DNA of 64,000 bases from contig NZ_CP009505.1 of NCBI RefSeq assembly GCF_000970045.1, positions 2,418,001-2,482,000 of the forward strand, in the 5' to 3' direction. Both the position numbers and the translations under genes were made by a program. The notes beneath the pieces are model-generated. The model saw nothing but the letters and a program-made list of their open reading frames with translations, had not been told where the DNA came from and made no database searches. This DNA comes from Methanosarcina sp. MTP4 (GTDB lineage Archaea > Halobacteriota > Methanosarcinia > Methanosarcinales > Methanosarcinaceae). Shown one piece after another: positions 49,411 to 62,436 of this stretch. How positions within the stretch are numbered: the first letter of the stretch is position 1; each line of letters begins with the position of its first letter.

Positions 49411-50268
49411 TCAGATTTCCTTTATCCTGAAATAACAGCATTCATTTCGGTTTCCAATGGTTTTATACACTTCGACTCCCCATCTGCCGGGCATTTTCGA
49501 GGCAACATTTGAGAAGATCTTTCTTGTGAGGGTACAGAGAATCGGGTTTCTGCGCGCCTGTTCTTTACCCCAGGGACAGGCTATCCCTTCAATTATGCAG
49601 GCGGTTCCTTCATCGTCTGTTTTCGAACTGAAATCCCCTCCGAGCTGGTTCATAATATCTTCACAGATTTTCCCTGTGTAGGCAAGGTCCAGGTCTTCCA
49701 GGTCAAAGGAGTACATATCGATCAGGGTTTTCTGGACCATGCCGGTCATCTGGTTGATCATTATCTTTTTCTCTTCGTAAGAGATTGCCTGAAGAAGAGT
49801 GGGAATGATTTCGGTCAGGATGCTCTGAATCCTGTTTTTAACCTCGAGGCTGTCGCGTTCGGCCGCCAGTTTGTCGTGGAGGTCTTTTACCCTGAGCAGG
49901 GACTTAACTCTTGTAGTGAGTTCAAGCTTGTTTATGGGCTTCGTAAGAAAATCGTCAGCTCCCACATCGATCCCCCTTATACGGTGCTCGAGCTCCGAGA
50001 GGGCCGTAAGCATCAGGACCGGGGTGAACTGGGTTTCACTGTCAGCCTTAAGGAGCCTGCAGACCTCATAGCCGTCCACTTCGGGCATCATGACGTCCAG
50101 GAGGACCATGTCAGGTTTTTCTTCCCTGACCTTCCGAAGAGCCTCTTTTCCGCCGTAAGCGGTAATCGTTGTGTAGGGTTCCGATAAAAGGTAAGCTTCC
50201 ATCAGTTCTACATTGATCTCTTCGTCATCGACAATCAGGATTTTGGGCGTTTTTTCTTCAATCGACAA
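49411..50268 (-). CDS. Response regulator with methanogen-type output domain
   Basis: A 285-residue CheY-like regulator. The TTG start at 50268 has GGAGGGAC seven bases upstream and overlaps the last codons of the KaiC-like gene, so translation is coupled. The receiver domain shows Asp14-Asp15, phospho-acceptor Asp58 (VLLDVMMP), Thr88 and Lys110. A coiled-coil follows (HDKLAAERDSLEVKN), then a C-terminal domain with CPWGKEQARRNPILCTLTRK and NECCYFRI. This Cys/NPxC layout is like the 'metanogen output domain' of Methanosarcina signal proteins; that family name is tentative. There is no HTH, so output is by protein contact. Confidence 0.9.
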   Translation of the reverse strand: MSIEEKTPKILIVDDEEINVELMEAYLLSEPYTTITAYGGKEALRKVREEKPDMVLLDVMMPEVDGYEVCRLLKADSETQFTPVLMLTALSELEHRIRGIDVGADDFLTKPINKLELTTRVKSLLRVKDLHDKLAAERDSLEVKNRIQSILTEIIPTLLQAISYEEKKIMINQMTGMVQKTLIDMYSFDLEDLDLAYTGKICEDIMNQLGGDFSSKTDDEGTACIIEGIACPWGKEQARRNPILCTLTRKIFSNVASKMPGRWGVEVYKTIGNRNECCYFRIKEI

Positions 50269-50986
50269 GTTCTGTCCCTCCGGATTCCCGTATTTTGATC
50301 CCCTCGGGTGTAATTTCAAAGACCGACATGTCAGGAGAAATAGGGGTGCTGCGCATTTTGGAAATATTCAGGTAGCGCTCCATTTTTCCAAGGTACGCGT
50401 TTTCTTTTACAAGAAGCCGGATTGAGCCGTATGCCGTGTACTCCGCCAGTTGCTGGCTCATGTTGTATGCGGCTTCGTCCATAATCAAAAGGGTTGTGCA
50501 TCTTTTTTTTCTAAGAAGGTAGTTCATCCCGTCTAGCTGGTCCCGCAATTTTCTCGTGGAAATCCGGAGGGCGAACACCCCGACATTATCAATAACAAGG
50601 CATTCCGTGTCTTCGGGTACAAGTTCTACGAGATTGGGAAGTTCGATTTCAAAACTTTCGGGCTTGAATCCGACCCTGGTCTGCCCTATTCTTTCCGAGC
50701 GGTTTTCGAAGATCCGTTCGATGATAAGCTGCCCGCTTTCGTAGTAAGGCTTGAGATCGTGGCCCAGCAGGCTTGCCTGGTAGAGAATATCTTCGGGAGT
50801 TTCCTCCGTTGCTATCATCATACACTTCTTGCCTTCAAGGCAGGACCTGTAAAGAAAATGGATTCCGAAGATGGTTTTCCCGGAACCGGCTACCCCTGTT
50901 ATAAGGATAACCTTCTCCCCGGGATAGCCCCCGCTCAGCTTCTTATCCAGTTCATCTATACCCGTTGAAAACCTTTCCATTTTCAC
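50258..50986 (-). CDS. KaiC-like ATPase coupled to response regulator
   Basis: A 242-residue single-domain RecA/KaiC ATPase. Walker A is GVAGSGKT (res. 31-38). The TEETPEDILYQASLLGHDL region carries the KaiC catalytic Glu pair, and CLVIDNVGVFAL is Walker B. It resembles the 48498 paralogue. Its stop overlaps the start of the response regulator by 11 bases, so the two probably act together: an ATPase that reports cell energy or switches the receiver-output protein. Confidence 0.9.
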   Translation of the reverse strand: MKMERFSTGIDELDKKLSGGYPGEKVILITGVAGSGKTIFGIHFLYRSCLEGKKCMMIATEETPEDILYQASLLGHDLKPYYESGQLIIERIFENRSERIGQTRVGFKPESFEIELPNLVELVPEDTECLVIDNVGVFALRISTRKLRDQLDGMNYLLRKKRCTTLLIMDEAAYNMSQQLAEYTAYGSIRLLVKENAYLGKMERYLNISKMRSTPISPDMSVFEITPEGIKIRESGGTELVD

Positions 50987-53682: not shown

Positions 53683-53761
53683 AGAACATAGATGCAAAAA
53701 GCATAGGTACTCAATAACCGTGAATCCGAAAAGAATGGAATTAAACGAGGGAGTGGGAAAC

Positions 53762-54190
53762 ATGAGAAATATAGTGGAAACTGCTATTGACGCAGGAGTA
53801 TTCAAGACTCTTGTCCAGGCTGTAGAGGCTGCAGACCTGGTCAAAACTCTGAGCGAGGAGGGACCTTTTACGGTCTGTGCCCCGGATGACGAGGCTTTTT
53901 CAAAACTTCCCGGGGGAGCCCTGGACATTCTTTTAAAAGATCAAGAAAGCCTGAGACAGGTCTTGCTCTTCCATGTGGCTTCAGGGCAGGTCATGTCCCG
54001 GGATATCGTGAAAATGCAGTCTGTACAGACCCTGCAGGGCGAGGAACTCAAGATCGATATCACCCAGGGAGTCCAGATTGGAGATGCACAGGTAACCCAG
54101 CCGGATATCGAGTGTTCTAATGGTGTCATCCATGTAATTGACAGGGTATTAATCCCGAAATCAATTAAAATGCATGCTGCCCCCCGTTAA
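53762..54190 (+). CDS. Fasciclin-domain protein
   Basis: A 142-residue protein made of one FAS1 domain: IVETAIDAGVFKTLVQAVEAADLV, GPFTVCAPDDEAFSKLP, VLLFHVASGQVMSRDI, and CSNGVIHVIDRVLIP. GAGGGAGTGGGAAAC before 53762 sets the start and excludes the longer ORF. It has no signal peptide or anchor, as in many methanogen fasciclins. The usual role is adhesion or protein binding. It follows the LSm-like gene by 80 bases. Confidence 0.92.
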   Translation: MRNIVETAIDAGVFKTLVQAVEAADLVKTLSEEGPFTVCAPDDEAFSKLPGGALDILLKDQESLRQVLLFHVASGQVMSRDIVKMQSVQTLQGEELKIDITQGVQIGDAQVTQPDIECSNGVIHVIDRVLIPKSIKMHAAPR

Positions 54191-54200
54191 ACTTCTTCTT

Positions 54201-55865
54201 TCAAACTCCTTTCCTTTTTTCGATTTCAGCTTCCTGGATTTTATCAGGCAAATACTCAAAAAAAGCTCCGAGCCCGGCTGCGCATTTCAAGCTATTAAAT
54301 ACAGCCTTTACTGTCGATTTTTTAACGTAGACGCTTTCTTCTTCAAGCTTAAAGATCTCCCAGGACTTCCCTGCAAGAGAAAAGCTCTGGCAGGCTCTAA
54401 TGCAGCCTGGGGAAAGCCGGGCTTCCCCTATTTTTTTGTTTGTCCGGGAGTTCACGACTTCCACAAACCTTTCGAGAGGAATATTGGAATGGAGCGTACC
54501 CTCCTCGCCCTGGTTCATGATGAACTCCGAGGCGTAAATTTTCCGGTTTCTGGAGCTTATCAGCCCTGAAGCAAGCAGTTCTTCTATGATGCTTTTCAGG
54601 TCTTCGTAGGCACAGAAATTGTTGAATAGCCTGTACAGGTAGTCTTCATCCACGCCCCAGGGGTTTGAGAACAGGACGGAAAAAATTTGCTGGACTGCAA
54701 CGGAAAGGTCCGGGACATACACTTTATTTCCAGGGAAGTTTTCTTTTGCATGGTCCAAAAGAAGTTCGAATAAGGGCATTGATTTGCTGTCGCAGAGGAA
54801 AAAGACCCTCGCAAACCCTGTTGTTTTCCCGGCGCATTCAAAGCCCCGGGCAAATGAATGAAGGTTCCCCGGAATCCCGGCAAAGACCACGGCATCAATA
54901 TCTCCAACACTGATTCCGGCATCATGAGCAACTGATGAAATGCAGACGGCTCTTTCGGCATTTTTGAAAAAGTTCTCCACTTCTTCTTTTTCGGACCCTG
55001 AAAGTCCTTCATGGAGGACGGCCAGATGGGCGGCTGCTGTCAAAGGATCCCGGAACTTCTTCAGCAGGGTCTCGACTTCTTCGCTTTTCTCCCTGCTGCC
55101 GCAAAAAACAAGGATTTTTTTTATGTATTCCTTCCCGGCAAGCTCGAAGATCTCCTCGAATGAAGCTGCATAAGTCTCCTTTATCTCCCTCTCTTCTTCC
55201 ACCCGGATTACCTGGAAATCGTCCATGTACCGTTCCCCGACCTGTACCGCGTTTCCGACAGGGGTTGAGAGGGCGTAGACGGAAAACTTTCCTGCAATTT
55301 CCCTTAAGCGTTCCAGGAGGAGGCGGACCTGGTCTCCCCGGTATCCCCCGTCGATACCGTGGACCCCATCAAGGACCACAGCCCGTACCCTCTCCAGCCC
55401 TTCCGGATACCTGCAGAGCAGGGAGTCCAGGGCTTCGGGGGTCGTTATCAGGAAGTCAGGGGGGTTATCCGCATTTATAAAGACCCTATACGCTGTTTTT
55501 TTAGATACCCTCAGGCCAGGCCTGGCAAGCTGTTCACGGAGCCGGCCAAATATTTCATTTGCCCGCGCCCGGGTAGGGGTGAGGTAAAGCACAGCCAGCC
55601 CTTTTCTCTTTTCTTCGAGGACAGTTTCGCACAACGGAGCAAGCACAGCTTCGGAAATCCCCTCTTTTTCCGGAGCCGCGATGACCGCATTTTTTCCCTC
55701 AAACACGGTCCTAATAACCATTTTCCGGACAGGAGATAAGGGCGCAGACCGGCTAAAAAAGATGTACCAGGTCCTTTTCAGGAGCCGTTTTATATCCTGG
55801 TTTTCATCCCCTGTTTTTACCCTTCCTTCGTATACTGTTCGCTCATTTCCTTCTTTCTCACTCAT
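54201..55865 (-). CDS. Lhr/Ski2-like helicase homologue with degraded active site
   Basis: A 554-residue protein with two RecA folds and a winged-helix C-terminal part. The helicase shape is clear from motif Ia (LYLTPTRARA), motif Ib (ITTPEAL), motif III (ALSTPVGN), and VFCGSREKSEEVETLLK and VLHEGLSGSEKEEVENFF of the second fold. Catalytic motifs are lost: Walker A is AAPEKEGIS (res. 63-71) instead of APTGSGKT, motif II is LDGVHGID (Asp166-Gly-Val-His) instead of DExH, and motif VI is FECAGKT instead of QxxGRxGR. It probably no longer hydrolyses ATP and acts as a DNA- or partner-binding scaffold. It closes the cluster with two BrxD-like ATPases. Confidence 0.85.
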   Translation of the reverse strand: MSEKEGNERTVYEGRVKTGDENQDIKRLLKRTWYIFFSRSAPLSPVRKMVIRTVFEGKNAVIAAPEKEGISEAVLAPLCETVLEEKRKGLAVLYLTPTRARANEIFGRLREQLARPGLRVSKKTAYRVFINADNPPDFLITTPEALDSLLCRYPEGLERVRAVVLDGVHGIDGGYRGDQVRLLLERLREIAGKFSVYALSTPVGNAVQVGERYMDDFQVIRVEEEREIKETYAASFEEIFELAGKEYIKKILVFCGSREKSEEVETLLKKFRDPLTAAAHLAVLHEGLSGSEKEEVENFFKNAERAVCISSVAHDAGISVGDIDAVVFAGIPGNLHSFARGFECAGKTTGFARVFFLCDSKSMPLFELLLDHAKENFPGNKVYVPDLSVAVQQIFSVLFSNPWGVDEDYLYRLFNNFCAYEDLKSIIEELLASGLISSRNRKIYASEFIMNQGEEGTLHSNIPLERFVEVVNSRTNKKIGEARLSPGCIRACQSFSLAGKSWEIFKLEEESVYVKKSTVKAVFNSLKCAAGLGAFFEYLPDKIQEAEIEKRKGV

Positions 55866-55995
55866 ACTCAGGGCTTCCGGAATTATTTATAGGGCTTTTT
55901 TTGCCTTCCTTTCAGGTCTGGCTTTTTCATCTGGGCTTTTTAGGTCTGATTTTCTCCATCTAATTTTATTCCGTCTGACCTTTTGCATTTCAGAT

Positions 55996-58900
55996 TCATT
56001 TGAATCTTTCATCGGAACCGCTGTCCGGATGGTAGCGCATGAGGTCCAGCCCTTCCACCGCAGCCTTGACAAAGCTTCGGGGCCTGTCAAGCGGGAGATA
56101 GGAGTAAAGGTTTTTTTCAGACGAATAACCGTAGGCTTCGGAGTAGATTTTTTCTATGTTCCCTAGCAGGGTTTGCAGAGAAGGTTCGTCCAGGGTTTCA
56201 AGTTCTATCCGGCCCATGGAACCAAAGAGGGAGGATATTTTTGAAAATTGTTCCATGGATTCAAGCATTTCGGGCACGAATGAAAAGATAAGTTTCAGGT
56301 CCGATTCCCTCTCCCAGAGGTAAGGGATAGGCTGCTGTGTCATTTTGCTGTAGATCAGGCCGCTTTTCTTCCCCAGGTTGTCAGCGTCCGGGGTGTCGTC
56401 TATCAGGGACTCGTCTGAATTGCTTAGCAGGACAAGCCCCCTGAGGGTGTTAAGGGCCTTGTCGAACTGGTAATTCGTATACCAGTAAGGGTCAACAGTC
56501 TCGGCTTCGTCGAAAAGGATGAGGACCCCTTCCAGCCCCAGGATGTGCTTTGCAGCCCAGCTTAAGCCGTTGAGCAGGTTGGCGTAAAGGTTTGCCGCAG
56601 TCTGGTGTTTCTGGAGGACCGGGAAACCTGCAGGCCCTTCCCTCCTACCTTCGATCCATTCGAAAAGCCACTCCCGGTCCTTCCCTTCCTGCCAGGCCTC
56701 CTGCATTTTGCCAAGGTAGGGATGGCTACGGATCTTTTCTACCTCAGGACTTTCACTTTCGTTCAGGAGGGTAAGGAATGCCCTGAAATCTCCCAAAGCC
56801 CCGTTTTCCCTGAAACAGAAATTGTTTACAAAACTTTCATACAGCTGGTGCGGTTTGTGGAACGGAGTCTCCTGGGCATCGATTTCGATCCTTGCAACCC
56901 CCCAGTTTTGCCTGAGCGCCGTTTCCGAGAGCATCTCAAGGAAATGAGTCTTTCCACTTCCGTATTCCCCTATGACCTGCAGGGCTCCTCTTCCTGAATC
57001 GAGCCAGCTACAGGCTTCAAGGAATTCTTTCTCCCTGCCCACTGAATACTTTTCAACACAGGAAAGAGGTACACCTCCAAGCCTTAGTGCCTCAATTATC
57101 CTGCGGGCTGCAATTCTCGGTTTGACATCCTCTCCGGGAGCGTTTCCATTCCCGGGACCCGGGACTTCCGCTTTAAGCTCGGCAGCATTTTGTTCAATTT
57201 CCGAAGATACGATTTCAGGAGATTCAATTTCCGAAGATTCGAGTTCAGAAGATTCAATTTCCGAAGATTCGAGTTCAAGAGATTCAATTTCAGGAGATTC
57301 AATTTCAGGAGATTCAATTTCAGGAGATTCAATTTCAGGAGATTCAATTTCAGGAGATTCAATTTCAGGAGATTCAATTTCCGAAGATTCGAGTTCAAGA
57401 GATTCAATTTCAGGAGATTCAATTTCAGGAGATTCAATTTCAGGAGATTCAATTTCAGGAGATTCAATTTCAGGAGATTCAATTTCCGAAGATTCGAGTT
57501 CAGGAGATTCAATTTCAGGAGATTCGAGTTCAGAAGATTCGAGTTCAGAAGATTCGAGTTCAGAAGATTCGAGTTCAGAAGATTCGAGTTCAGAAGATTC
57601 GAGTTCAGAAGATTCGAGTTCTGGAAGTTCGTTTACCTCTCCGGTAAGTTCAGCAATTGATTTTAGAAGTGTTTCAGTGCCTATTCCAGCAGAAGTCACA
57701 GGAGTTGCAGAAACAGTAGATTTGGATGCCACATGTTCGGACTCTACAGGTTCAATTGCTGTGGGTTCAGATACTACAAGTTCAGAAACAGCAGATTCGG
57801 ATTCCACAGGTTCAGATACTACAAGTTCAGAAACAGCAGATTCGGATTCCACAGGTTCAGATACTACAAGTTCAGAAACAGCAGACTCGGATTCTACAGG
57901 TTCAGAAACAGCAGATTTGGATTCCACATATTCGGACTCTGCAGGTTCAAGTGCTGTAGGTTCAGATACTACAAGTTCAGAAACAGTAGATTCGGATTCC
58001 ACAGGTTCAGAAACTACAAGTTCAGAAACAACAGACTTGGATTCTACAAGTTCAGAAACAGCAGAATCGGATTCCACAGGTTCAGAAACAGCAGAATCGG
58101 ATTCTACAGGTTCAGAAACAGCGGGTTCAATATCTGGTTCCGTGGTTATTTCGGGAGAAGCACGACTTATTTCTTTATCTTTCTCTGTATCTTCTTCTGT
58201 GTCATCAATTTGTTCGTATTTCTGCTTTTCATCCGAAGTAATCGAATTTATGGTAGCCAGCAAATTAGAGATTCCTGTCGAATCCTTATTTATTTCCGCT
58301 TCCGAGGTTGCTGCAGGAGCTGAAGTTGCTGAAGGTTCGGTCTTTTGCGCAGGTTCTGGTACTTCCTCTGAGAAGGAAACGTTCGGAACTGGACCTTCTG
58401 GAGCCCGTTCGTCCTCTAAAGGCTCAGGGGTTTTCAGCAAATTCAGAATTTCGTCAAGAGGCGAAGATTTTTCCGGGGCAGTCACTTGCGAGTCCGTTAA
58501 ATCAGCTGTTTTTCCGGAATTCGGGGATGTCGGATTGGAGGGGACTTCCAGCTGGTTTATCAGTTCTCCATTGTGCATTACTTCCGGAAGTTCAGGGACC
58601 TTCAAAATATCCGAAATTTCTATCGGCTCCATTTTTACGGGAGCCGGGCTTTCAACCGGAGCAAGCACCTCCAATACGGCTTTTTCCTCAGCAGGCTCCT
58701 TTACCCCTTCAGGTTCGGGTTTATCCAGTTGATTTGAGACTTTCAGCAGGTCGAAGATTACGGGGACTGCCGGGGTTTGTGCTGCTTCCGGTGTTTTCTT
58801 TAAGGCGGGGGGTTTTGTCAGATCAGAGATTTTGGTAAGATCAGAGACTTCAGTCGGATCAGATGTTTTAGTCGAATCGGGGGTTTTTGCCAGATCCGGG

Positions 58901-59235
58901 GTTTCCATTGAATCCGGAAGACTGATTGAGGAAAGAGTTTTAATGTCAAGGGCAGCTCTGGGAGGAGGGCTGATTTTTTCCACCCTGCGGCCTTCGGAGG
59001 ACAGAAGACTTGTCTCCTCAGGCAGGGATAAGGGCAGGGCTTCGACTGTGTCAATTGCCTTTTCAGGGGGTTTGCTGCTTTTCAGTATCTCCTTTGCTTT
59101 CCCGGTTTCTTTTGTTTTCCTTTCGGCTTCTGCTTTTGAAGAGCCTCCAAAAATCCGGCGGCTCAATTTACTCAAAATTTCAGTGAATTTTCCAAAGATA
59201 GGGAGTCTAAGTCCTAAAAAATTTTTTCCGGCCAC
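55996..59235 (-). CDS. BrxD-like (DUF2791-type) ATPase with long repetitive N-terminus
   Basis: A 1079-residue protein. GTG 59235 has AGGTGGTGCC before it. Residues 1-40 are basic, then about 650 residues are low complexity, rich in Pro, Ser, Glu and Val, ending in a 15-residue repeat (SELVVSEPVESESAV) and about 29 pentapeptides (ELESS/EIESP). The ATPase domain starts near res. 715: GGVPLSCVEKYSVGREKEF, Walker A GEYGSGKT (756-763), ETPFHKPHQLYESFVNNF, Walker B GVLILFDEAETV, and a sensor-like IFSFVPEMLE. It is a paralogue of the 59621 protein. The acidic, repetitive arm may tether partner proteins or mark the surface of a DNA-bound complex. Confidence 0.82.
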   Translation of the reverse strand: MAGKNFLGLRLPIFGKFTEILSKLSRRIFGGSSKAEAERKTKETGKAKEILKSSKPPEKAIDTVEALPLSLPEETSLLSSEGRRVEKISPPPRAALDIKTLSSISLPDSMETPDLAKTPDSTKTSDPTEVSDLTKISDLTKPPALKKTPEAAQTPAVPVIFDLLKVSNQLDKPEPEGVKEPAEEKAVLEVLAPVESPAPVKMEPIEISDILKVPELPEVMHNGELINQLEVPSNPTSPNSGKTADLTDSQVTAPEKSSPLDEILNLLKTPEPLEDERAPEGPVPNVSFSEEVPEPAQKTEPSATSAPAATSEAEINKDSTGISNLLATINSITSDEKQKYEQIDDTEEDTEKDKEISRASPEITTEPDIEPAVSEPVESDSAVSEPVESDSAVSELVESKSVVSELVVSEPVESESTVSELVVSEPTALEPAESEYVESKSAVSEPVESESAVSELVVSEPVESESAVSELVVSEPVESESAVSELVVSEPTAIEPVESEHVASKSTVSATPVTSAGIGTETLLKSIAELTGEVNELPELESSELESSELESSELESSELESSELESSELESPEIESPELESSEIESPEIESPEIESPEIESPEIESPEIESLELESSEIESPEIESPEIESPEIESPEIESPEIESPEIESLELESSEIESSELESSEIESPEIVSSEIEQNAAELKAEVPGPGNGNAPGEDVKPRIAARRIIEALRLGGVPLSCVEKYSVGREKEFLEACSWLDSGRGALQVIGEYGSGKTHFLEMLSETALRQNWGVARIEIDAQETPFHKPHQLYESFVNNFCFRENGALGDFRAFLTLLNESESPEVEKIRSHPYLGKMQEAWQEGKDREWLFEWIEGRREGPAGFPVLQKHQTAANLYANLLNGLSWAAKHILGLEGVLILFDEAETVDPYWYTNYQFDKALNTLRGLVLLSNSDESLIDDTPDADNLGKKSGLIYSKMTQQPIPYLWERESDLKLIFSFVPEMLESMEQFSKISSLFGSMGRIELETLDEPSLQTLLGNIEKIYSEAYGYSSEKNLYSYLPLDRPRSFVKAAVEGLDLMRYHPDSGSDERFK
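57190..57630. repeat. 15-bp tandem repeat in ATPase gene
   Basis: About 29 copies of a 15-bp unit (GATTCAATTTCAGGA, GATTCGAGTTCAGAA and mixtures) encoding EIESP or ELESS on the minus strand. The two alleles of the unit alternate in blocks, suggesting repeated slippage and gene conversion. The frame is kept because the unit is a multiple of three. Confidence 0.95.
57735..58130. repeat. 45-bp tandem repeat in ATPase gene
   Basis: Degenerate copies of a 45-bp unit encoding VVSEPVESESAVSEL-like 15-mers on the minus strand, with shorter 30-bp pieces. It is separate from the 15-bp array. Confidence 0.9.
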
Positions 59236-59620
59236 GGCACCACCTGGGGGAGTAATTTGAAAATAAATACTGGGAACTAATATTGGGAATTAATATTGGG
59301 AATTAATATTGGGAATTAATATTGGGAATTAATATTGGGAATTAATATTGGGAATTAATATTGGGAATTAATACTGGGAATTAATACTGGGAATTAATAC
59401 TGGGAATTAATACTGGGAATTAATATTGAAAATCGAGGATTTGAATAAAAAGCAAAGAGTATAATATATTAAATTTATTTAATGCTTAATAGAAGTTACG
59501 CACTTGGGAAGTAAAAACAAGCACATGAGACCTTACCAATAAAATAATTATTTAGATAGTTTGGAGTCTCATCCCACTGTTTTTTTGTTTCAACTGCGTA
59601 AGTCCTGGCTTAAATTTTTA
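59236..59620. repeat. 13-bp tandem repeat between the two BrxD-like ATPase genes
   Basis: Bases 59268-59428 carry about twelve copies of a 13-bp unit (ATTGGGAATTAAT, later ACTGGGAATTAAT). No gene is seen. The array lies upstream of the larger ATPase gene and could change its promoter strength by copy number. Confidence 0.95.
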
Positions 59621-60865
59621 TCAGGTTTTCTCCGCCCCCTTCGCATTTTCCATACTGTTTGCTTTCAGGGCATGGAAGGAAGGAACAATCAGCTGGACAA
59701 AGAGGCGGTTGTATGCGATTTCTCCGTAGCTTTCCTGGTCGGCTTTTTCAGCAACTTCCCTGATCGTGGTTTCCAGTTCGGCCTCATCGAATTTCACTTC
59801 GTGGGCGATTTCGTAGATCCTGGCAAGCTTTGCCCCGATTTCGATCAGGAGGTCCACGGGGTCTTTTGAGAGGTTTTCAAGGTCAATCTTGACTCCCGTG
59901 GGGTTGATTTCTCCTTCAAAGGTGGTCGAAAGGCGCTGGTTGAGGGCTTCGTAGACATTTGTCCTGCCTTCCAGGAAGCTCTCGTCAGGCACGGCATAGA
60001 AGACCATGGTCCCTTTCAGGGCACCCCGGCTGCAGGCATCCACCAGTTCCCTGAGGTTCTGGAGGAGGGTGCTGCGTTCCCTTGTGCTCATGCTAGGGGT
60101 CTGTTCGGCTTCGTCCAGCAGGACTATAAGCCCCGAATACCCGGTTTTCAAAACAAACTGGACAAGACAGCGGAGCATTTTGAAGGCTGTTGACCTGTCA
60201 ATTTTCTCATATATGTGGAGCTCGGTTAACAGTTTCGAGGAGGGGTTTTCTCCTTTCAGCCACTGCACAATGAGGTCGAAAAGTTCTTCCTCTCCCTGGT
60301 AAAGGGCAGTAAAAGCTTTTTTCACCGCGTTCTGGAAACTTGTGCTTTCAAAGGACCCAAGTGCCCGGAGGTAATTTTCCACCTCCTCTCCCGGACGGTA
60401 GGGGGGAACCAGGGGCAAAATCTCAATGGTTTCCCTGTACCACTTTCTCAATACCGCCTCAATCCCTTTTTCAGGTTCATCCAGAAGGGCGGCAGTTTCC
60501 TGGGGGAAGATCAGATTGGAAACAATGGCCCTGTACACCTCTTCCAGCTTGTGGAAGGGCACGGAATTGGCACTCAGCTCGATGTAAGAAGTGATGTAAT
60601 TATGTTCCCAGGCCCTCCCGAGTACATTGTACAGGAAATGGGTCTTACCCCCTCCGTAGGCTCCCACGACCATTTTGAAGGAGCTACCGCCGTATTTTAT
60701 GTAGTCTTTCAGGTACTCGGCTTCGATCGTTTCCATGTACCTGTCCAGGCCCGCCGTGAAAAACTGGTATCCGTAAAGGGGAGGCTGTCCGGTCCCTCCT
60801 ACCTCGTTTATGATCCGCTTTGCCAGGGTCCTGTCGAGATTTTCAAATTCGGTTTCATCACCCAT
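59621..60865 (-). CDS. BrxD-like (DUF2791-type) ATPase
   Basis: A 414-residue P-loop ATPase of the BREX BrxD kind. The start region (FENLDRTLAKRIINEVGGTGQPP) is followed by YGYQFFTAGLDRYMETIE, Walker A GAYGGGKT (res. 68-75), NSVPFHKLEEVYRAIVSNL, Walker B LIVLLDEAEQT (Asp251, Glu252) and a sensor IFYAVPDESFLEG-like strand (MVFYAVPDESFLEGR). It lacks the long N-terminus of its paralogue. GGGAGAGG precedes the ATG, and the upstream gene ends 20 bases before it, so the two are one operon. The role is probably assembly on DNA or control of the helicase homologue; this is inferred from BrxD family context. Confidence 0.88.
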   Translation of the reverse strand: MGDETEFENLDRTLAKRIINEVGGTGQPPLYGYQFFTAGLDRYMETIEAEYLKDYIKYGGSSFKMVVGAYGGGKTHFLYNVLGRAWEHNYITSYIELSANSVPFHKLEEVYRAIVSNLIFPQETAALLDEPEKGIEAVLRKWYRETIEILPLVPPYRPGEEVENYLRALGSFESTSFQNAVKKAFTALYQGEEELFDLIVQWLKGENPSSKLLTELHIYEKIDRSTAFKMLRCLVQFVLKTGYSGLIVLLDEAEQTPSMSTRERSTLLQNLRELVDACSRGALKGTMVFYAVPDESFLEGRTNVYEALNQRLSTTFEGEINPTGVKIDLENLSKDPVDLLIEIGAKLARIYEIAHEVKFDEAELETTIREVAEKADQESYGEIAYNRLFVQLIVPSFHALKANSMENAKGAEKT

Positions 60866-60885
60866 CTTTCCTCTCCCTTTCTGTG

Positions 60886-61728
60886 TTACTTCACTTCCCT
60901 GAACTTAACCTGGGATATGGATTCGCCCAGGCCTTTTCCGGACTGCGGGGGGATCCAGAGGAAAGCTGATTTTCGTTTTGTTTCCGCTCTCCTTGCCGTT
61001 ATGAGCCTGAGTTCGAAACCTTCAAGCCTCCGCTTTCTCAAGCGTGAGAGGTCATAGCTGAACATGATCCGGCTGTATTCACCGTAGTATTTTTTCAGGG
61101 GGTTTTCCCTGAACTTTTTATCCTGAATGACAAAAGAGTACGCAGAAATGATCTCGGAAACCGGGATTTCTTCATCAAAATTCTTATTCTCCCGGAGCAG
61201 GCAGATCCTGTAGGCTTCCAGCAGGTTGTTCAGGAACTCGTCGTCATCGAATTGCCTGCTGCTTATGGTTTCGTCCCATTCCAGCAGCTTTGCCGCAGTC
61301 AGGTCCGGGCTGGCTTTAACCGTGTCAATCCTCTCGAATTCGGGCCCGTAGTAGATGTCTACCTTATTTGCGTCCAGCTTTACCACAAACGTGTACATCG
61401 AGGTCCTGAGCCGCGGGTAATGGCCTTCCAGGGAAAAACCTTGGTCCTTCAGGTTTTCAGCCAGTTTTCGTCCGAAATCCGCCTTTACAAGGGCTTCGAG
61501 ACTTGAAATCTCAGCCCTGTATGCTTTAAGCTCCGAATTTATCCTGCCCTTAAAAACAGGGTCGAACAGGCAGTTTTCCAGGTACCTGTCCATTTTCTTC
61601 ACTTCGTCTTTCAGGATGCTCAAACGTCTGGAAGGGTTCTCTTCCTCTTTGCCAATTTTTCTAAGGGCCAGCCTCATGTTTTTTGCTAATGTGGCCTGGC
61701 TCCCGAGTTGTTTGATTATTTCTTCCAT
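60886..61728 (-). CDS. Helical protein at the head of the BrxD-like cluster
   Basis: A 280-residue protein of unknown family. The first 110 residues are strongly helical and charged (LALRKIGKEEENPSRRLSIL and RYLENCLFDPVFKGRINSELKAY), suited to coiled-coil packing. A mixed alpha/beta part follows (SMYTFVVKLDANKVDIYYGPEFE, a beta sheet), ending in helices and a basic tail (RLRKRRLEGFELRLITARR). GAGGG precedes ATG 61728. It is 20 bases upstream of the BrxD-like gene and likely encodes a structural partner of the ATPases. Confidence 0.75.
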   Translation of the reverse strand: MEEIIKQLGSQATLAKNMRLALRKIGKEEENPSRRLSILKDEVKKMDRYLENCLFDPVFKGRINSELKAYRAEISSLEALVKADFGRKLAENLKDQGFSLEGHYPRLRTSMYTFVVKLDANKVDIYYGPEFERIDTVKASPDLTAAKLLEWDETISSRQFDDDEFLNNLLEAYRICLLRENKNFDEEIPVSEIISAYSFVIQDKKFRENPLKKYYGEYSRIMFSYDLSRLRKRRLEGFELRLITARRAETKRKSAFLWIPPQSGKGLGESISQVKFREVK

Positions 61729-62436
61729 TCAAACCCTCGCGTCCTGCTCTCGTAGCAAAGTATCTTTATACGGAGTACATAAATCTGCCTATATTTATAT
61801 CTGAAGTGAATAATTCTATTTAAAATATAATAATATGGTATGTAATTTTTAATGCAAGGATTTTTCCGGAGAGACCCTTCAAATTTCACAAAAAAGATAG
61901 TCTGAGCTTCAACAATAAAGCTACTGCGAATTTTAACGAAAAAGTTAGCTGTTCTTGAGCCATGGGAGCCCCGGTATACCCTGGCCCTCAGCCAAAAGGA
62001 TCATCGAAGTTCGGTAAAAAAACGTTGAAATATCCATTTCAGGTCCATCTGCGGGGAGGCAACAGGCTCCTTTTCCATGTTTCTATAATAAAGCTTAAAT
62101 TGAGTGCAGTAATTACTGAATAAAATGTACTGACTGACCGGACCTGATAACCGGACTTGATAAACTAAATTATAACCGAAGCATGTAAAGAATAGGATGC
62201 TTTTACGCTCTAAAAGGAGCAGGTTTACTTCACCAATTAACCTTATCGATTAACCTTATCGATTAACCTTGTCGATTAACCTTATCGATCAACCTTGTCG
62301 ATTAACCTTATCGATTAACTTTATCAATCAACTTTATCAATCAACTTTATCAATCAACCTTATCAATCAACTTTATCAATCAACCTTATCAATCAACTTT
62401 ATCAATCAACCTTATCTTTCACAGGGAGACCCCCAC
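61729..62436. promoter_or_regulatory. Divergent region between the BrxD-like cluster and ileS
   Basis: No gene is seen. Bases 61790-61850 are A+T-rich and are the likely promoter of the leftward cluster. Bases 62232-62412 carry about fourteen copies of a 13-bp unit (AACCTTATCGATT, later AACTTTATCAATC) ending 25 bases before ileS. GGGAGACCCCCAC precedes its ATG. Confidence 0.6.
62232..62412. repeat. 13-bp tandem repeat upstream of ileS
   Basis: About fourteen copies of a 13-bp unit, graded from CTTATCGATTAAC-type on the left to CTTTATCAATCAA-type on the right, the usual sign of stepwise slippage. Confidence 0.95.

What the first reader, a model, noticed from the sequence alone, without database searches (positions are those of the whole stretch)
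54201..61728. Four-gene cluster with two BrxD-like ATPases and a dead helicase
All four genes run leftward: a helical protein, a BrxD-like ATPase (20 bases later), a larger BrxD-like ATPase with a repetitive arm, and an Lhr-like helicase homologue. BREX type 2 pairs BrxD with BrxHI, and Ter-associated loci pair similar ATPases with SF2 helicases, but there is no methyltransferase, PglZ or PglW here. The duplication of the ATPase and the loss of helicase motifs suggest a new scaffold-type complex, perhaps for DNA processing or transfer rather than restriction.
Basis: partly seen in the sequence, partly recalled or inferred. Interest (0 to 1): 0.75.

Follow-up and report, generated by a model that had tools for sequence, protein, structure and literature searches.

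The report
Patchy four-gene module, derived dead helicase
This is a conserved four-gene set with a patchy distribution in archaea and some bacteria, built from two DNA-loader-type ATPases, a helicase and a protein of unknown fold; it resembles anti-virus systems such as Shango and BREX without being either, and in this methanogen's lineage the helicase has lost its catalytic parts but is still kept by selection.

Summary
In detail: four leftward genes, hel (280 aa), atpA (414 aa, BrxD-like), atpB (1079 aa, BrxD-like with a 707-aa repetitive acidic arm) and lhr (554 aa, helicase motifs lost).

It is a real module. The same genes in the same order occur in Methanosarcinaceae, ANME-1/ANME-2 lineages, Archaeoglobaceae, a korarchaeote and bacterium-labelled contigs. 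In three ANME-2 genomes hel-atpA-atpB stand alone, but an intact helicase of the same family lies elsewhere in the genome. Distribution is patchy (hel in 18 of 186 genomes of the order); three Methanosarcinaceae relatives have an empty site. About half the non-Methanosarcinaceae loci inspected have defence genes nearby.

It is not BREX (no PglZ in the genome) nor Shango (no TerB protein; separate clades). The two ATPases are old paralogues. Every readable helicase outside Methanosarcinaceae keeps its catalytic motifs; all five Methanosarcinaceae copies have lost the Walker lysine yet remain constrained (dN/dS 0.21-0.32, against 0.14-0.22 for intact relatives). So the dead helicase is a derived state of one lineage, not the nature of the system.

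Best reading: a new four-gene variant of the BrxD-helicase defence architecture. Anti-virus function is inferred, not shown.

The parts
60886..61728 (-). hel: first gene; 280-aa protein of unknown family, the marker of the system
   Evidence: No Pfam or PADLOC family; homologues seen as first gene of the module; AlphaFold pLDDT 90.3, no confident fold match in PDB or BFVD; dN/dS 0.13-0.19 in comparisons of the window copy
59621..60865 (-). atpA: BrxD-like AAA+ ATPase, Walker A GAYGGGKTH and Walker B LLDEAEQ intact
   Evidence: PF10923 E 3e-49, PADLOC BrxD E 5.5e-42, SngB E 9.6e-21; own clade 100/99 in the tree
59262..59428 (.). 13-bp tandem repeat, 12.8 copies, in the atpA-atpB gap
55996..59235 (-). 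atpB: second BrxD-like ATPase with long N-terminal arm, 1079 aa
57115..59235 (-). N-terminal arm of atpB (residues 1-707): 24% D/E, 7% K/R, low-complexity repeats; takes the place of the short Tudor-like domain of most relatives; residues 13-30 could form an amphipathic helix
   Evidence: Tudor PF21196 E 5.8e-4 in the KSB1 relative, below the curated cut-off
57193..57615 (-). 15-bp tandem repeat, 28.2 copies, coding five-residue units of the ELESS/EIESP kind
55996..57114 (-). AAA+ domain of atpB (residues 708-1079), Walker A GEYGSGKT and Walker B LFDEAE intact
54201..55865 (-). lhr: SF2 helicase homologue (DEAD + Helicase_C + C-terminal part), shorter than BrxHI/SngC (554 against about 700 aa)
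55647..55676 (-). helicase motif I, degenerate: APEKEGISEA
55356..55373 (-). helicase motif II, degenerate: LDGVHG
54819..54857 (-). helicase motif VI, degenerate: SFARGFECAGKTT

Best explanation
The cluster is the Methanosarcinaceae branch of a distinct four-gene module, spread patchily and probably by horizontal transfer, that most likely defends against viruses or other mobile DNA. Proposed working: the two ORC/Cdc6-type AAA+ ATPases (AtpA and AtpB) form an ATP-driven clamp or loader on foreign DNA, AtpB adding a Tudor-like contact domain in most lineages; they place an Lhr-core helicase on it, which unwinds or remodels the DNA and stops replication or exposes it to host nucleases; Hel is the adaptor or sensor. 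In Methanosarcinaceae the helicase has become a pseudoenzyme kept as a structural or nucleic-acid-binding subunit, so any motor work would come from the AAA+ pair. Shown by computation: the module, its usual order, patchiness, empty sites, separate clades, motif loss and continuing selection. Inferred: complex formation, loading, defence, the role of Hel and of the dead helicase.
For: Order and strand hel-atpA-atpB-lhr conserved in all loci that extend past atpB except three ANME-2 loci; in those three genomes (G470, G471, G049) an intact helicase of the same family, 83-85% identical to the linked one of UBA261, is encoded elsewhere, so the four genes stay together in a genome even when unlinked. 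Patchy: 5 of 112 genomes of the family, 18 of 186 of the order, 15 of 393 of the phylum sample; also a korarchaeote and bacterium-labelled contigs, one of which (L071) has flanking genes that look bacterial (ECF-sigma-like, BatA/VWA). Three relatives of the neighbouring genus lack the cluster at the same ileS site. Defence-type genes beside or within a few genes: Type I restriction enzyme and GmrSD/HEC-05-like gene (L058), Druantia DruE (L059), HEC-01A/B (L060), OLD/Gabija-like (L054), HEC-01A/PDC-like (L055), GmrSD N-domain (L083), SIR2-like fragment (L053). Closest relatives are components of Shango, a tested anti-phage system (PMC10250203), and of BREX-2, where BrxD is classed as ORC-Cdc6 AAA+ and proposed to load BrxHI (PMC12839542). 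ORC, Cdc6 and DnaA structures are among the Foldseek matches of atpB with the lowest rmsd. Selection on the dead helicase: dN/dS 0.21-0.32 against 0.14-0.22 in intact relatives, no internal stops.
Against: No nuclease, methylase or known effector in the module. The neighbour genes were chosen by eye, those were mostly nearest neighbours, and no background rate was measured. Several loci (GMC4, Archaeoglobaceae, ANME-2, Methanosarcinaceae) have housekeeping neighbours. In Methanosarcinaceae the locus is stable beside ileS. No hit of hel in plasmids, phages or viral contigs. The atpB model is of modest confidence (pLDDT 70.8; TM-scores in the list not above 0.42), and its top Foldseek hits by E-value are proteasomal AAA+ proteins.
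Confidence: 0.55

Rival explanations
1. A chromosomal maintenance module (replication-fork or repair remodelling, ORC/Cdc6-like ATPases with an Lhr-core helicase), inherited with the chromosome in Methanosarcinaceae and unrelated to viruses.
For: Same position beside ileS in five Methanosarcinaceae genomes of two genera; strong constraint on atpA (dN/dS 0.07-0.14); in two f5 genomes the module directly follows a gene pair that looks like topoisomerase VI B and A (by sequence look only); housekeeping neighbours in several loci; helicase unlinked but kept in ANME-2 genomes.
Against: Patchy presence, empty sites in relatives, bacterial copies, defence neighbours in about half of the other loci inspected.
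Confidence: 0.22
2. In this genome the system is a decaying relic of a defence module: the helicase is dead and the rest will follow.
For: Stepwise motif loss: KYL-1 keeps DEIH and most of motif VI, BL5 keeps DEIH, the other three have DGVH. Slightly higher dN/dS than intact helicases, highest in the second RecA domain (dN 0.126, dS 0.341).
Against: No frameshift or internal stop in the helicase of any of the five genomes; hel is full length in all five and atpA in four (in the UBA9310 draft atpA is split by a frameshift); both ATPases keep Walker A and B; dN/dS far below 1 in all four genes, also in comparisons across the two genera.
Confidence: 0.15
3. It is a Shango or BREX-2 system whose missing parts are encoded elsewhere in the genome.
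For: Same ATPase-then-helicase core; Natrinema, DL31, Paenibacillus, Hymenobacter and Sulfitobacter carry TerB-BrxD-helicase in the same order. ANME-2 genomes show that parts can be unlinked.
Against: PglZ not found in the genome, with the control search ringing elsewhere. TerB_C not found, though its control rang nowhere, so that search is weak. hel shares no detectable profile similarity with Shango TerB proteins (hhalign E 0.39). Separate clades for atpA (100/99), atpB (100/100) and the helicase (100/99).
Confidence: 0.05

Closest known systems
Shango (SngABC)
   Same: Short operon: accessory protein, BrxD-like ATPase, Lhr-type helicase, in that order; defence-island setting (PMC10250203)
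   Different: The first protein carries TerB domains, hel does not; one ATPase, not two; helicases about 720-750 aa; ATPase and helicase fall in other clades
BREX type 2 BrxD-BrxHI pair
   Same: Best PADLOC profiles for atpA (BrxD) and lhr (BrxHI); ATPase and helicase encoded close together
   Different: No PglZ, PglX, PglW or BrxC beside the genes; PglZ absent from the genome; PMC12839542 reports no type 2 BREX in archaea; the helicase lacks about 180 positions at the C-terminal end of the BrxHI profile
ORC/Cdc6-type AAA+ loaders
   Same: AAA+ fold; ORC, Cdc6 and DnaA are among the atpB structure matches; BrxD is classed there by PMC12839542
   Different: Distant in sequence; loading has not been shown
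PcrA/UvrD Tudor domain
   Same: Short N-terminal domain of most atpB relatives resembles it; PF21196 E 5.8e-4 in the KSB1 copy, below the curated cut-off
   Different: Absent from the Methanosarcinaceae copies, which carry a long arm instead

Membership tests
Shango | TerB-domain protein as first gene | tested here: not met
   No TerB hit in hel; hhalign of hel against four Shango-like TerB proteins E 0.39
Shango | BrxD-like ATPase followed by Lhr-type helicase | tested here: inconclusive
   Both present, but a second ATPase lies between them and both belong to separate clades
Shango | Anti-phage activity | not testable with these tools
   No experiment
BREX (any type) | PglZ/BrxZ | tested here: not met
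   PF08665 not found in the own genome; two control genomes ring
BREX type 2 | PglX methyltransferase and PglW | not tested
   None noticed in the neighbourhoods listed; no genome-wide search was run
BREX type 2 | BrxD and BrxHI as adjacent pair | tested here: inconclusive
   Homologues present but in separate clades and with a second ATPase between them
PF10923 BrxC_BrxD ATPases | Profile match over the curated cut-off with intact Walker A and B | tested here: met
   atpA 168.5 bits, atpB 65 bits, cut-off 22.2; Walker motifs
Active SF2 helicase | Motif I GKT, motif II DExH, motif VI QRxGR | tested here: not met
   GIS, DGVH and no QRxGR in the window copy; present in relatives outside Methanosarcinaceae

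The most novel reading that the evidence does not exclude
A so far undescribed prokaryotic immune system with a paired ORC/Cdc6-like AAA+ motor, in which one lineage has replaced helicase unwinding by a pseudo-helicase scaffold and a long acidic arm on the second ATPase, so that the AAA+ pair does the whole job.
Probability: 0.27. Interest if true: 0.72.

Novelty: new variant of a known kind. Interest (0 to 1): 0.5.

Why it matters
It adds a candidate immune system, mainly archaeal, in ANME and methanogen lineages, and gives a natural experiment: the same module with a live helicase in most hosts and a selected dead one in Methanosarcinaceae. Comparing the two would test whether BrxD-type ATPases work as helicase loaders, as proposed for BREX-2, or as motors in their own right.

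Tried and rejected
Recent ATPase duplication: rejected, the two ATPases form separate old clades. hel as a TerB relative: no profile similarity. hel as a known fold: no confident match in PDB (best E 0.53) or BFVD (best E 5.3e-3, partial). The weak NCBIfam hits of hel (LIC_10202, E 3.3e-4, one member of 20; QatB, E 0.002) were taken as chance. Loss of the helicase in ANME-2: suspected when no helicase followed atpB in L069, L073 and L079, rejected because an intact one lies elsewhere in each genome. Mobile-element carriage: no hit of hel in plasmids, phages or viral contigs. Searching bacterial phyla with a bacterial locus as centre was not possible. The radical-SAM gene beside L066, which hits viperin profiles, was not counted as defence because the same gene lies in a relative at a place without the module (L032). 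No paper describing the module was found; the library holds open-licence papers only, so a description elsewhere is possible.

Full report
What is there. Four minus-strand genes lie at 54201-61728: hel (280 aa), atpA (414 aa), atpB (1079 aa) and lhr (554 aa). hel and atpA are 20 bases apart; atpA and atpB are separated by 385 bases with a 13-bp tandem repeat; atpB and lhr by 130 bases. atpA is a BrxD-like ATPase over nearly its whole length, atpB only in its C-terminal part (Pfam match at residues 709-813), and lhr is nearest to BrxHI and SngC. hel has no family.

The module is conserved. tblastn and gene calls in relatives show hel-atpA-atpB-lhr in the same order and strand in three genomes of the same genus, in Methanosarcina sp. 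KYL-1 (G327/L065), and in genomes of the unnamed families f2, f3, f5, f9, f10, f19 and f27; in f2 the held contig ends within atpB. A scan of 84,980 species genomes gave 22 loci: Methanosarcinaceae, ANME-1 and ANME-2 relatives, a korarchaeote, Archaeoglobaceae, and contigs labelled bacterium GMC4, Deltaproteobacteria, Cloacimonadota and KSB1. The GMC4 contig ends inside the helicase and the KSB1 locus ends at atpB. GMC4 flanks look bacterial; the Deltaproteobacteria copy is so close to the ANME-2 ones (73-87% identity) that misbinning is likely.

Exceptions. In three ANME-2 genomes (G470, G471, G049; loci L073, L069, L079) hel, atpA and atpB are not followed by the helicase. Each genome does encode an intact helicase of the same family elsewhere, 83-85% identical to the UBA261 copy, with GKT, DEIH and QRIGRG. 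Some draft contigs have atpA split (UBA9310; G338, with masked sequence).

Patchiness. hel was found in 15 of 393 genomes of the phylum sample, 5 of 112 of the family and 18 of 186 of the order (one of these is a short weak match). In three genomes of the second genus (G033, G193, G023) the genes that flank the cluster on its far side in the window lie close to ileS, without the cluster. The fasciclin-like gene at 53720-54190 was not tested separately in those sites.

Neighbourhood. Outside Methanosarcinaceae, PADLOC or Pfam matches near the module are: Type I restriction enzyme and GmrSD/HEC-05-like gene (L058), Druantia DruE (L059), HEC-01A/B (L060), OLD/Gabija-like (L054), HEC-01A/PDC-like gene (L055), GmrSD N-domain (L083), SIR2-like fragment (L053). 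GMC4, Cloacimonadota and Archaeoglobaceae loci showed none among the genes tested. The genes were picked by eye, so the association is suggestive, not measured.

Families. In IQ-TREE trees the helicases of the module form one clade (100/99) apart from BrxHI and SngC; atpA (100/99) and atpB (100/100) form two clades, each apart from BrxD and SngB. The tool warns of long branches, so the order of these clades is unsure. Most atpB relatives begin with a short Tudor-like domain, absent in some ANME-1-type copies; Methanosarcinaceae copies have an arm of about 490-710 residues instead, acidic in the window's genus (22-24% D/E in the three unmasked copies) but not in KYL-1 (17% acidic, 15% basic). 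The hel model (pLDDT 90.3) has no confident fold match; the atpB model (pLDDT 70.8) matches AAA+ proteins, ORC and Cdc6 among them.

The dead helicase. Motif I is GKT in every helicase outside Methanosarcinaceae whose motif could be read, and motif II is DExH (DDIH in the korarchaeote); some contigs end before motif II or VI. In the five Methanosarcinaceae copies the lysine is gone (GIP in KYL-1, GIS in the others); KYL-1 and BL5 keep DEIH, the other three have DGVH; motif VI is nearly intact in KYL-1 and lost in the rest. These five form one clade (100/100), so the loss most simply began once and went on in steps. dN/dS of the dead helicases is 0.21-0.32, of intact ones 0.14-0.22; hel 0.03-0.19, atpA 0.07-0.14 and the atpB domain 0.08-0.22 in the same lineage; ileS 0.04-0.08. 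These are simple pairwise Nei-Gojobori estimates.

What it is not. PglZ is absent from the genome, with the control search ringing. TerB_C was not found, but that control rang nowhere; the direct test on hel is negative. PMC12839542 reports no type 2 BREX in archaea.

How it may work. Shown: module, usual order, patchiness, empty sites, separate clades, motif loss, selection. From the literature: Shango inhibits phages (PMC10250203); BrxD is proposed to load or activate BrxHI (PMC12839542). Inferred: AtpA and AtpB act as an ATP-driven DNA clamp or loader, Hel as adaptor or sensor, the helicase as effector in most lineages and as structural subunit here. Transfer or conjugation has no support: no transfer genes were noticed in the neighbourhoods listed.

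Verdict. A real, conserved and, as far as the searched library shows, undescribed four-gene variant of the BrxD-helicase architecture, probably a defence system, with an unusual selected pseudo-helicase in Methanosarcinaceae.

Noticed in passing
L127 4607-12679; L128 1-5037: In two f5 genomes (G500, G497) the module directly follows two genes that look like topoisomerase VI subunits B and A (identified by eye, no profile run).
   Followed up: no
L069, L073, L079 against L134-L136: In three ANME-2 genomes the helicase gene has been separated from hel-atpA-atpB but is kept intact elsewhere in the genome.
   Followed up: partly
window 62234-62416: 13-bp tandem repeat of 14 copies upstream of ileS, different in sequence from the repeat in the atpA-atpB gap (59262-59428).
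   Followed up: no
L111, L112, L113: Genes that look like an N-type ATP synthase operon sit near the empty site in three relatives; none was seen at this place in the window.
   Followed up: no
L094 4987-18789: Deinococcus psychrotolerans plasmid carries a BrxD-like ATPase and helicase twice, with other unknown partner genes.
   Followed up: partly
L084, L085: Natrinema zhouii and halophilic archaeon DL31 plasmids carry a Shango-like TerB-ATPase-helicase operon (TerB proteins 90% identical) followed by metallophosphoesterase and SMC-type genes.
   Followed up: partly
L080: Deltaproteobacteria-labelled contig with an ANME-2-like module, probably misbinned.
   Followed up: no
window 49411-50986: Response regulator and KaiC-like ATPase gene pair near the cluster, conserved in the relatives.
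   Followed up: no
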